DNA of 64,000 nt, from contig NC_135551.1 in assembly GCF_964340395.1 (NCBI RefSeq), forward strand, positions 28,565,880-28,629,879, written 5' to 3'. Shown piece by piece: positions 32,501-38,500 of the stretch (positions within the stretch are counted from its first letter, which is position 1; the number at the start of each line of letters is the position of its first letter). Source of the stretch: Glandiceps talaboti. Lineage: Eukaryota; Hemichordata; Enteropneusta; Spengelidae. Position numbers and translations under genes: made by a program. The notes below the pieces were generated by a model. The model ran no database searches and was not told where the DNA came from. It was given only the letters and a program-made list of their open reading frames with translations.

Positions 32501-35500
32501 CCTATCCTATACTGTGTACATGTAATTCTGACACACATACAGTAACTATGCAGTATTTAATGTCTTTAGACAGTGAAAACCAGCTATAGACAAATAATAA
32601 TAATAATAATAATAATCTTTATTTATACTGGTATTTCTTTATAAGTACATATATGTAAACACTTATCTCCCAAGAAGTCCAGTGAGGGCCACCCCTCATA
32701 GGTTTAGTGTTAATGCAGGAGGAAACCGAAGTACCCGGGGAAAACCTACGTTGTTTGGTAGAGTCAAACTGAACGACACTCTTCTTACTTACAGCGTGGT
32801 AAATTTAATCGAACCCTGAATGGGGTTTCAAACCCCGACCGCAGTGGTAAGAGGCAAGTGGTTTAAACCAATCGGCCACTGACAAACTATTACCTATAAA
32901 ATATGTGACAACTTAAACGCAGTGGAACCAGTAGCCTCTGTTATTAACATATAACTAACGACTCTAACTTTACTACTATCTAATGTTACATGACATTATG
33001 TACTTTATTTATCTTTCACTTTGCTTCATTTTCCATTCATAAAGACGTTTCAATATGTGTCGAAGTTTGAGTACAAAGATGTGGTTTTAATTGTGGTAGT
33101 GTAAAGGGTTTACTTCTGTTATGACTTGCCTGAAATACCTTGACTTGAGTCATGTATGGTAAACATGGTACAACAAGCTCTGCATGTCAACCACACACAT
33201 GCAGACTGCCCTCTAGAGTTAGCCTAGTCTCAACTACTTTGCATTCTAAATCCACAGAGCTTTTTATTCAAACACTGCCCTCTATAGAAAATATTAATAC
33301 TGACAATGGAAAACATTAAATATAACAAATCTATAAGAGTCTTACCTGGTAAATTTGGATTGAACCGAAATATATGATCAGCACAACTGCCTACAGGAAT
33401 TCTGGGACACTTTTCATTGGGTTGTTCATGAGATAACGGAGCACTGTCTTCTGTAACCACCATTAGAGCAGCTGAAATGATGAAAACAACAATAGTAAAA
33501 ACACAATAAATACTAACACTATCACAAAATTTATCCAGACATACTTGAAGGTGGTGTAAGAGTTGACTCCCATTTTAAAGGTACCTTTACAAAGATAGCA
33601 GACATAGGCCTGACTAGCTAAGCCTGACACAAACTAGAACTATTATCATCGTTGCATGATTAAGTGGTGATAGGTGTCACACTGTTGCTGACATAATCAT
33701 CTAATTTTCACAGATATTTCTTTTGTTAACATTTATTTCTTGTTGCTCACCTTTCTTGCTTTGGAGCTGGCCATCCACCTGCAAGTGAACATCGCCCTCT
33801 GGAGATGACTCTGTGGCTGAAGCACCGGATGCTGGACTATGATCACTATCAAGGTCCTCAGTAAATATAATATGCGAGTCTTCTGTACTATCAACAGAGT
33901 GATGTGAGTTGATATCTCCTGCACCATCAACGAAGTGATTACTGGAAGCTATTGGTCTGGTATGAGTATCTTTATTGTTGTGGATGTCATCTACAGAACC
34001 TAATTAATGAATAAAATTTGGTGAAAATAAGCAAACACCAACATATTCTGAAGTCGGTATACATTTAACAAGCTACAATCATTGAATTTTACACAAAATA
34101 TATTGACAATAAATACAAACAAATTCTGAATATGAATATTAAATTCAAAAACAGACCTATGAAGGACTGAACTATATACTTTGTGCAGAATTAATTGATT
34201 TTTTCCGTTGTAGGAAAAGTATATTATAAATACAGTATTTCAGACTTTAACATCTAAATTCAGCAAAAAGTTCACTTCAGACAATATTTTTGACCAAAAT
34301 TCAGAAAAAGTAAATTTTATAAATTACTTCTATTCTATAAAGTAATGGAAGTACATACCTGCTGCTAGAAATGACTGAACATCTGTTGACTTTGGCATTG
34401 ACCCTGAGTTTTCAATGTCAAGCAAATTAACCATGGAATCGGTGACATTCTGTTGTGAGATGTAAGAGCCATCTACATGGCTACCAGATGAGTTGGTTAT
34501 CACATCATATTCACTATCAGAACTATCACTGTAAGGATTCTCTTCTACATCATAATATAGAGACCTACAATTGGTAACAACATTTCATGTTAAACATAAT
34601 ATAGAGACCTACAATTGGTCACAACATTTCATGTTAAACATAATATAGAGACCTACAATTGGTCACAACATTTCATGTTAAACATAATATAGAGACCTAC
34701 AATTGGTAACAACATTTCATGTTAAACATAATATAGAGACCTACAATTGGTCACAACATTTCATGTTAAACATAATATAGAGACCTACAATTGGTAACAA
34801 CATTTCATGTTAAACATAATATAGAAAACTAAAATTGGTCACAACATTTCATGTTAAACATAATATAGAGACCTACAATTGGTCACAACATTTCATGTTA
34901 AACATAATATAGAGACCTACAATTGGTTACAACATTTCATGTTAAACATAATATAGAGGCCTACAATTGGTCACAACATTTCATGTTAAACATAATATAG
35001 AGACCTACAATTGGTAACAACATTTCATGTTAAACATAATATAGAGACCTAAAATTGGTCACAAAATTTCATGTTAAACATAATATAGAGACCTACAATT
35101 GGTCACAACATTTCATGTTAAACATAATAGACACACCTACAATTGGTAACATTTCATGTTAAACATAATATAGAGACCTACAATTGGTCACAACATTTCA
35201 TGTTAAACATAATATAAAGACCTACAATTGGTCACAACATTTCATGTTAAACATAATATAGAGACCTACAATTGGTCACAACATTTCATGTTAAACATAA
35301 TATAGAGACCTACAATTGGTAACAACATTTCATGTTAAACATAATAGACACACCTACAATTGGTCACAACATTTCATGTTAAACATAATATAGAGACCTA
35401 CAATTGGTAACAACATTTCATGTTAAACATAATATAGAGACCTACAATTGGTAACATTTCTTGTTAAACATAATATAGAGACCTACAATTGGTCACAACA

Positions 35501-38500
35501 TTTCATGTTAAACATAATATAGAGACCTACAATTGGTTACAACATTTCATGCTAAACATAATATAGAGACCTAAAATTGGTCACAACATTTCATGTTAAA
35601 CATAATTTAATGGAGACACCTAAAATTGGTAACATTTCATGTTAAACATAATGGAGACACCTACATTTGGTCACAACATTTCATGTTAAACATAATATAG
35701 AGACCTACAATTGGTAACATTTCATGTTAAACATAATAGACACACCTACAATTGGTAACATTTCATGTTAAACAGAATAGACACACCTACAATTGGTAAC
35801 ATTTCATGTTAAACATAATGGTGACACCAACAATTGGTAACATTTCATGTTAAACATAATAGACACACCTACAATTGGTAACATTTCATGTTAAACAGAA
35901 TAGACACACCTACAATTGGTAACATTTCATGTTAAACAGAATAGACACACCTACAAATGGTAACATTTCATGTTAAACAGAATAGACACACCTACAATTG
36001 GTAACATTTCATGTTAAACATAATGGAGACTTAAAATTGGTACAGACATACATATTCACATAATATAGCAAATCACTAACTATATTATATAACTAGGTCT
36101 ACACACCTCCAAATAGCTTATAATTCTGTACTTACTCTAGTGAAACATATGTTGATCCAAGTACAAATGTAGTATTGTAACTAGATCTACATACATACCT
36201 CCAAATACATTATAATTCTGTACTTACTCTAGCGAAACAAATGCTGATCCTAGTACAAATGCTGCATTATAACTAGATCTAGGTATTCTCTCACCGCCAT
36301 CATCAGAATACGATATATAAGAATCTATGGTCTCCAGACTGGATAACGATAAATTCTCAATCTGAAAATAGAATTACACAAAAACTGAATTATCATGATG
36401 TGGAACAAGAAGTAAGTACATTGTACTTAGTAGGACCAAAGACATACTTCCTTCAGACATAGTTTGAGTACATGTTACAACTTTACATAATGTGAAAAAT
36501 ATACTACCATGGAAATAAAGCTATTGGTAAAGTACAATAGACACACACTAAAATTATAGTTGTTACATTAGTAGATTACACAGGTAGCTGTTAGCAAAGC
36601 CTTGGTTTTTGCAGATATAATTACTCAATAATCAGTTCCTGTAACTTGAGAAACACTCACTATCACAGACACTGTCCTACTGTGTGAGTAATTGTTCCAA
36701 TCCAATATCTGTTGCTAGCTTATATTTAAACATGTTGTAATAAAAGTTGTTGTGTAGTTTGTGTCTGTGTTAGCAAGTCGATGGTTGACTTGCCATAGTT
36801 GTATCTCACCTGAATGTCACTGGTTTTCCTATTCTCAGTTAGCCAACGTTTGTCACTGTGTGAACTATACCCACTAACACTGTCACTACGTAGTTTAGTT
36901 TTATACACCTCATATAATGGCCAACAGTTAATGGCACTGCTCCTACAGAAGAAAGATATTTACACTAACATTTTACAAATACCATTAATTTTATAAAAGT
37001 ATAATCAGCAACATGCCTTAGCACATTTTTTATATACATATAGTCTGTCACTGATAAGAAGAGGTCTTGTCACAAAATGCCAAAGTGCAACTATCCATCC
37101 AATCATTCTTTTCTTCCTCTTCCCAACCTGCCACCTATCCATCCCTCTGAACTGTCTGCCTGTCTGTCCATCCACCTACCCAATCATGCACGTGCACACA
37201 CACACATACACACACAGACACACACAGACACAGACACACACACAGACACACACACACACACAGACACACACACACACACACACACACACACACACACACA
37301 CACATACACACATATTACATAAACAAATTATGTCAGCTTACAGATCAATTTTATGAAGGAAGTTGATAGCTACACTCCTTCCTAGAGTTAACAATGTGGA
37401 GGGTGGTTCTATCAACTGAGACTCTCTGCTCTCAAAACTGACTGTCATTGGGTCTCTACTGTAACACTACAAATAAAACAGCAAATATTAAATATTAAAT
37501 ATTAAATATTAGGTAGACATGGTGTGTATGAGTTAAGTCTAAAACATGTTAATATCTGCGTTTGCTACCAGTCAGCATTTCTTGTTAACAAGTACGGTAA
37601 GTGGTAGGTAAAATCAAACCAAGCTCTAAAGTCATTTTTCCTGTATTTCCTCTTAGTTTTTCACTACATGTATACTAGCATAAATTACTCATAATAGTAT
37701 ATGTACACTATGCTAAACAAGTATGGCATGAAGCAATTGTACTCCATATTGTGTTAGTCTTTATAGTGTATTTAGCAAAAAAATCCACAAATAGGTGAAA
37801 ATGGTTTTATTTTTATATTCATATCCTAACGAGCTATTCTTACATTGTCCAACATTAAAACGTGGTGATTGATGGCTGGTAAAGTTAAACCTACATAATA
37901 CAACTCTGGTTAGTAATTGTAAGGGCTTTATTGAGATGGCACTTTTTGCATTTTTTTTATTAGGCCTTACCTGGTGAATTTTTCTGCATTTATTAAGACC
38001 TTCTTTAGCACCCCAGTAACACAGTTCATGAAGAGTTCTCAGTGTTTGATCAAATCTCCTGAATGTGTCTATTTTCACTAACTTGGGTCTGTACTCACTA
38101 CCCTGATCTTCATGTGGAAATGGTGGAGTAGTCCGTCCTGGTTGGATATCACATAAACAAATATTCAAATTACAAATTAAAATTACTGGACAAGTAGTAG
38201 CCATATCTCAATCAGATTTAGATCTGAAATACATCATTATCATTTTATCTATTTATTTTTATACATAATTCAAGCCACATTTTTGTGAGGTGAGATTCTC
38301 TAGGGTTTCAAAAAATTGAAGACGTCTTCTAGATATTTGTAAGGTAATTTTGATTTATTTATTAAATCTACCCTAGTTCCCCAGATATTTTATTGCAGTT
38401 GTCACCCAGATATTTTATCATAGTTGTCACCCAGATATTTTATCGTACAGTTGTAGTTGTCACCCAGATATTTCATCGTAGTTGTCACCCAGATATTTTA

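What the first reader, a model, noticed from the sequence alone, without database searches (positions are those of the whole stretch)
34359..36045. Acceptor of SMCR8 exon 12 is amplified into about 34 decoy acceptors
The 44-bp array unit contains CCAATTGTAG|GTCTCTATATTATG, the exact intron-exon border of exon 12, in most copies. A decoy acceptor, if chosen, reads TCT CTA TAT TAT GTT TAA, a stop six codons in. The true exon is distinguished only by what follows its first 14 bases. How the spliceosome picks the last of over 30 equal acceptors is a real question.
Basis: partly seen in the sequence, partly recalled or inferred. Interest (0 to 1): 0.75.

Follow-up and report, generated by a model that had tools for sequence, protein, structure and literature searches.

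The report
Splice-site minisatellite in SMCR8
One gene of a marine animal seems to carry about 33 tandem copies of a splice acceptor just before the one it uses, a large example of a known oddity called a mirage minisatellite, and it offers a natural test of how cells choose between look-alike splice sites.

Summary
The array is real. On the minus strand, 33 tandem units of 41-46 bp lie upstream of a terminal unit at the predicted exon start (34564). 32 of 33 decoys keep the AG, 30 of 33 are AG|GT, 5 match the terminal unit over 44 nt, and all 33 lead to a stop within seven codons. The gene is SMCR8. The exact border motif is in 18 of 34 units, not 'most'; no exact copy was found elsewhere in the genome.

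The exon border is not proven. A second in-frame route (donor 36295, acceptor 34544) would make the array wholly intronic; coding scores do not decide.

The phenomenon is known: minisatellites across splice borders, 'mirages', are published for amphioxus (PMC3087553, PMC3902484). Added here: mitochondrial evidence points to an acorn-worm-like hemichordate host; the array is larger than the published globin case; arrays at splice donors also occur in exon 4 of this gene and elsewhere, including STK40 and a galaxin-like gene. Whether they exceed chance is unsettled. Most likely the terminal acceptor is chosen by exon definition and decoy products are degraded; that is inferred. No RNA data were available.

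The parts
34359..34564 (-).
   Evidence: Keeps one open frame of 691 aa across 15 predicted exons, phases agree; no transcript data
34551..36068 (-). 44/41-bp minisatellite: 33 complete decoy units (36019-34596) plus terminal unit (34595-34552) that carries the predicted acceptor
   Evidence: TRF; unit table
34551..34564 (-). 14 exonic bases GTCTCTATATTATG shared with the repeat unit
34538..34546 (-). AGAAGAGAA, purine-rich enhancer-like stretch just past the shared 14 nt; GAAGA, AGAAG, GAGAA and AAGAG occur 0 times in the 1455 bp 34565-36019 and once each in the exon
   Evidence: enhancer role inferred
34544..34544 (-). First base of the rival exon start after TGATGTAG| (in frame with donor at 36295)
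36228..36361 (-). Exon 12, donor CTAGA|GTAAGT; rival donor GGCG|GTGAGA after 36295
36100..36281 (-). 92-bp tandem duplication carrying the end and donor of exon 12; second copy could be a 51-nt in-frame exon (36186-36136)
41103..41701 (-). 68-bp array spanning the donor of exon 4 (41656): 8 decoy donors downstream, each giving a stop if used
   Evidence: exon 4 is in the part aligned to human SMCR8
38851..39583 (-). 82-bp array ending 10 bp from the first base of exon 7 (38841); near, not across, the border
33346..45191 (-). SMCR8 gene, 15 predicted exons; C-terminal part below 33346 not modelled

Best explanation
This is a mirage-type minisatellite. A segment bridging the last 30 nt of intron 12 (branch-like TTTAAC, AG) and the first 14 nt of exon 13 was duplicated in tandem and expanded, the units nearest the exon being the most alike. 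The spliceosome most likely uses the terminal acceptor because the exon is defined from its other side: a donor (GCAG|GTATGT) only 206 nt away and a purine-rich enhancer-like stretch that directly follows the shared part and is missing from the array. Occasional use of a decoy gives a stop within seven codons, in 31 of 33 cases the TAA of the next unit's branch-like motif, so that product should be destroyed by nonsense-mediated decay. The array is probably tolerated rather than functional. Shown: anatomy, frames and stops. Inferred: border choice, exon definition, decay and neutrality.
For: Unit anatomy and 33 of 33 decoy stops. SMCR8 identity: phmmer against 6lt0_B (SMCR8), E 1.9e-47 over query 43-345, with one open frame of 691 aa. 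Branch-like TTAAC lies 26 nt from the terminal acceptor. Purine motifs once in the exon, zero in the array. Units 11-33 average 0.96 identity to the terminal unit against 0.86 for units 1-10, Spearman 0.72 over 33. Precedent: amphioxus mirages are reported not to disturb splicing (PMC3087553; PMC3902484). Similar arrays at donors: exon 4 of this gene, STK40 in L025, a short-chain dehydrogenase in L034, a galaxin-like exon in L039.
Against: No RNA evidence. The rival donor at 36295 scores higher than the one used in the model (9.28 against 6.33 bits on a recalled human-like matrix), and the 29 disputed codons score between coding and non-coding (10th percentile of windows of the coding training set, top 12% of open random windows). 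Within SMCR8 alone, 3 of 7 arrays spanning a splice site is not more than chance (P 0.12 or 0.45 under two null settings). The purine motif occurs once and its activity is untested.
Confidence: 0.6

Rival explanations
1. The array is wholly intronic. Exon 12 ends at 36295 (GGCG|GTGAGA) and exon 13 starts at 34544 (TGATGTAG|AAGAG). The true acceptor is then unique and the copies are only AG-containing repeats 20 nt upstream of it.
For: Reading frame open, 662 aa; donor scores 9.28 against 6.33; coding score of the disputed codons inconclusive.
Against: No branch-like motif 12-45 nt upstream of 34544 by the simple pattern used, while 34564 has one at 26 nt (but the acceptors of exons 3 and 12 also lack one); it would pass over an AG at a usual distance from that motif (inference); the 23 codons it discards in exon 12 are open and continue the frame.
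Confidence: 0.22
2. Self-erasing ladder: a decoy may be spliced first, but because most are AG|GT the junction regenerates a donor that can splice again to a later acceptor, until only the terminal one remains.
For: 30 of 33 decoys are AG|GT; 8 of 33 have GTGTGT, 7 of these 8 in the distal half (units 1-16), and a junction with them reads AGA|GTGTGT, 3.64 bits. In Drosophila even weak and poor regenerated donors were seen to be used at times (PMC8605326 passage).
Against: Junctions with GTCTCT units (19 of 33 decoys) read AGA|GTCTCT, -3.94 bits; the intron is only 1663 nt; the exon junction complex is reported to suppress regenerated splice sites (PMC8605326 passage).
Confidence: 0.08
3. Regulated poison array: decoy use is a way of lowering SMCR8 output through decay.
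For: 33 of 33 decoy acceptors and 8 of 8 exon 4 decoy donors give stops.
Against: Stops are expected often in AT-rich intron sequence, and copies of one unit share one stop; no conservation data.
Confidence: 0.05
4. Assembly artefact: copy number collapsed or inflated, or array misplaced.
For: Tandem arrays are error-prone; no reads available.
Against: Units differ from one another in an orderly way and one clean locus was found in the genome.
Confidence: 0.03

Closest known systems
Mirage minisatellites of amphioxus (Adh3, globins BflGb6 and BflGb9; TnC and PGBD5 named in PMC3902484)
   Same: Tandem repeat whose unit spans an exon-intron border; many units carry AG/GT; both donors and acceptors affected
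   Different: Host here is probably a hemichordate; 33 decoys against 6 and 3 repeat units in the two BflGb6 haplotypes, units 44 bp against 150-160 bp there and 10-72 bp in Adh3 (PMC3087553; copy number in Adh3 not seen); normal splicing was tested there, not here
Minisatellites at exon-intron borders of human genes in segmental duplications (PMC2812944, passages)
   Same: Tandem repeats at a border, cryptic splice sites
   Different: There they are linked to new introns in recent paralogues; here the gene is a single conserved one
Intron gain by tandem duplication of an AGGT segment (Rogers model; ATP2A1, fission yeast and potato cases as told in PMC4974935, passages)
   Same: AG|GT repeated in tandem
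   Different: Here the intron presumably existed first; no outgroup to show gain
Recursive splicing ratchet points of Drosophila (PMC8605326, passages)
   Same: Juxtaposed AG|GT
   Different: Short intron, weak regenerated donor for most units, no evidence of use

Membership tests
Mirage minisatellite | Repeat unit spans an exon-intron border (exon 13 array) | tested here: inconclusive
   Met if the acceptor is at 34564; not if at 34544
Mirage minisatellite | Repeat unit spans an exon-intron border (exon 4 array of the same gene) | tested here: met
   Donor 41656 lies inside array 41103-41701 and the exon is in the part that aligns to SMCR8
Mirage minisatellite | Tandem array of near-identical units | tested here: met
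   TRF 35.2 copies of 44 bp, 91% matches
Mirage minisatellite | Many units carry AG/GT splice signals | tested here: met
   30 of 33 decoys AG|GT
Mirage minisatellite | Length instability between haplotypes | not testable with these tools
   Single assembly; one copy of the locus found
Mirage minisatellite | mRNA spliced normally | not testable with these tools
   No RNA data
Recursive splicing ratchet point | Juxtaposed AG|GT | tested here: met
   30 of 33 decoys
Recursive splicing ratchet point | Strong regenerated donor | tested here: not met
   -3.94 bits for GTCTCT units, 3.64 for GTGTGT units, recalled matrix
Recursive splicing ratchet point | Long intron | tested here: not met
   1663 nt between 36228 and 34564

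The most novel reading that the evidence does not exclude
The array is a self-correcting splice ladder: because 30 of 33 decoys are AG|GT, a wrong choice can be spliced again and leaves no trace, so a gene can carry dozens of equal acceptors without cost; if true this could explain why such arrays are tolerated in this genome.
Probability: 0.08. Interest if true: 0.8.

Novelty: new member of a known kind. Interest (0 to 1): 0.45.

Why it matters
Acceptor choice usually cannot be separated from differences in acceptor strength. Here five decoys match the predicted acceptor over 44 nt, so only context can decide. It also extends border-spanning minisatellites of the mirage type to what is probably a hemichordate: arrays carrying donors were seen in SMCR8, STK40, a short-chain dehydrogenase and a galaxin-like gene.

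Tried and rejected
Retrocopy or second SMCR8 copy that would show the joined junction: none; the four matches were exons 12-15 of the window. Coding score of the disputed codons: inconclusive (the 'known' windows overlap the training set). RNA folding of five units and of the last decoy with the terminal unit and exon: z -1.43 and -1.61, not distinctive; a GACC...GGUC stem around the AG is possible in GTGACC units, but the 5 decoys identical to the terminal unit cannot differ by it. Arrays at splice sites within SMCR8: 3 of 7 spanning, P 0.12 and 0.45; 5 of 7 spanning or within 50 bp, P 0.045 and 0.18, under two null settings. Whole-genome tandem CAGGTAAGT pairs: 668 against 305 for the reversed string, but by distinct array on C1 and C2 only 10 (listing cut at C2 31.3 Mb) against 5, P 0.15, so arrays may simply include splice sites at the rate at which these occur; one of the five control arrays itself holds a CAG|GTATGT. 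Strong donors in array units of the window plus 17 sampled stretches (54 arrays, 51 after merging repeats of one family): against random segments, at 10 bits 6 of 51, 1.7 expected (P 0.004), at 9 bits 7, 2.8 expected (P 0.014), at 8, 7 and 6 bits P 0.13, 0.35, 0.25; a Markov null gave the same picture. The matrix was recalled, five thresholds were tried, and one of the six is SMCR8 exon 4. The five sampled-stretch arrays at 10 bits or more were all opened: STK40 and the dehydrogenase are supported by homology; L019, L030 and L018 were not tied to an exon. Five of the about ten arrays on C1-C2 were opened: 4 of 5 have an open exon-like frame before the first donor by eye (L038 not); Pfam was searched for those four: L039 passed its cut-off (galaxin), L036 had a match below cut-off (E 0.012), L035 and L037 none; L037 also had no PDB match. 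Open frames around the sampled arrays were listed but never searched. Gene-model attempts (error; exon ends off by one) were replaced. Canestro 2002, the original mirage paper, is not held; I know it only through PMC3087553.

Full report
What was checked. The window lies in a 590-Mb eukaryote assembly, contig C4. The finding's array is on the minus strand. TRF calls it 34551-36068, period 44, 35.2 copies, 91% matches. Read on the minus strand, 33 complete units stand upstream of a terminal unit; 22 of 33 are 44 bp, one is 46 and 10 are 41, eight of these ten being the eight most distal. Of 33 decoys, 32 keep AG, 30 are AG|GT, and 5 are identical to the terminal 44-mer. From each of the 33 the frame meets a stop within seven codons: in 31 it is the TAA of the next unit's GTTTAACA, in one (unit 11) a TAG at the same place, in one (unit 10) an earlier stop.

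The gene. Fifteen predicted exons on the minus strand join to one open frame of 691 aa. Its first half matches SMCR8 (6lt0_B, E 1.9e-47, query 43-345). The exons around the array (12-15) lie in a part without a match in that search, so their borders rest on frame, phase and splice signals only. The C-terminal part was not modelled. A search of the whole genome with exons 12-15 found these four exons only.

The border. With donor CTAGA|GTAAGT (36228) and acceptor TTGTAG|GTCTC (34564) the frame is open; with donor GGCG|GTGAGA (36295) and acceptor TGATGTAG|AAGAG (34544) it is open too, 662 aa. The second donor scores higher on a recalled matrix (9.28 against 6.33). The first acceptor has a branch-like motif at 26 nt, the second none by the same simple pattern, but the acceptors of exons 3 and 12 also lack one. 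The 29 disputed codons score in between. I give the first border about 70%.

Other arrays in the gene. A 68-bp array spans the donor of exon 4; 8 of 8 decoy donors would give a stop. A 92-bp duplication carries the donor of exon 12 as modelled, and its second copy could serve as a 51-nt in-frame exon. An 82-bp array ends 10 bp from exon 7. Placing the 7 arrays of the gene at random shows that 3 spanning a splice site is not unusual (P 0.12 or 0.45).

Elsewhere in the genome. I read 17 stretches of 10 kb at round coordinates (20 asked for, 3 beyond the end of a short contig). Array units of the window and these stretches are richer in very strong donors than matched sequence (6 of 51 at 10 bits or more, 1.7 expected, P 0.004; 5 of the 6 are outside the window), but not at 8 bits or less. 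Two were tied to genes by homology: in L025 the exon is STK40 (5l2q_C, E 3.2e-17; the match runs to the last codon before the donor, where I ended the query), in L034 a short-chain dehydrogenase ending in NNAG (adh_short E 4.6e-5, 23.4 bits, below Pfam's cut-off of 26.6; best PDB match E 0.0038), with about 32 units in three blocks. Tandem pairs of CAGGTAAGT number 668 in the genome against 305 for the reversed string, but 10 against 5 by distinct array on two contigs, P 0.15. Of five opened, four begin at an open exon-like frame, one of them galaxin-like (PF24748, E 1.9e-8). So arrays across splice sites are recurrent here; whether they are more frequent than chance is not settled.

The host. 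Mitochondrial genes other than COX1 were named by eye from their translations. The contig has 53% GC, a CTCTTAA (a Lys CUU anticodon loop) at 2509, just after COX2, and over approximate spans of six genes 2 AAA against 34 AAG codons, with no AAA in COX1. PMC3121625 (passages) gives tRNA-Lys CUU for echinoderms, Rhabdopleura and Balanoglossus, and no AAA codons and 50-55% AT for Balanoglossus; one of its passages names AAG as missing too, where its table has AGG, and AAG is plentiful here. Of the four ATA codons of COX1, two align with Ile, one with Val and one with Met of 7o37_a, so ATA = Ile is only hinted at. CYTB lies between ATP6 and COX3, which fits none of the orders in the passages that I read; that speaks against an exact match to a described order. 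Best guess: an enteropneust hemichordate, not amphioxus; species unknown.

How it most likely works. The array is best seen as a mirage: a border segment that expanded by unequal exchange or slippage, with the exon-near units most alike (mean identity 0.96 for units 11-33, 0.86 for units 1-10). Since five decoys equal the terminal acceptor, choice must come from context. The terminal acceptor alone has the exon behind it: a donor at 206 nt and the purine-rich AGAAGAGAA, absent from the array. Exon definition with decay of decoy products is the simplest account and agrees with the reports that amphioxus mirages do not disturb splicing. None of this was tested on RNA. The bolder idea, that AG|GT decoys can be spliced again, is possible; weak regenerated donors and reported suppression of such sites speak against it, the occasional use of weak regenerated donors in Drosophila for it (both PMC8605326 passages).

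Literature. Seen: passages of PMC3087553, PMC3902484, PMC2812944, PMC4974935, PMC8605326, PMC2697986, PMC2034537 and PMC3121625; search listings. The two papers read here that use the word mirage for such arrays concern amphioxus; border minisatellites in human segmental duplications (PMC2812944) and AGGT tandem repeats in fission yeast (told in PMC4974935) are related cases elsewhere. I saw no report for a hemichordate in the listings; that is a limited library of open papers, and I did not read most of the listed ones.

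Noticed in passing
L034 5211-7841, minus strand: About 32 units of 48 bp in three blocks, many ending CAG|GTAAGT, behind a short-chain dehydrogenase exon; 48 is a multiple of three, so parts of the repeat could be read through in frame.
   Followed up: partly
L025 7793-8032, plus strand: 104-bp duplication across the donor of an STK40 exon.
   Followed up: yes
window 36136-36186, minus strand: Possible nascent 51-nt exon from the 92-bp duplication, in frame with both neighbours.
   Followed up: partly
window 37965-38005, minus strand: Exon 8 seems to use a very weak donor AAG|GTCTTA, with a strong CACCAG|GTAAGG nearby that does not fit the phase of exon 9; homology length supports the weak one.
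   Followed up: partly
L012-L013 (G000:C40): Mitochondrial contig holds about three tandem copies of a 15.4-kb genome with CYTB between ATP6 and COX3.
   Followed up: partly
window 49476-53243, plus strand: Unbroken frame of 1256 residues rich in Lys, Arg, Ser and Asp, gene not identified.
   Followed up: no
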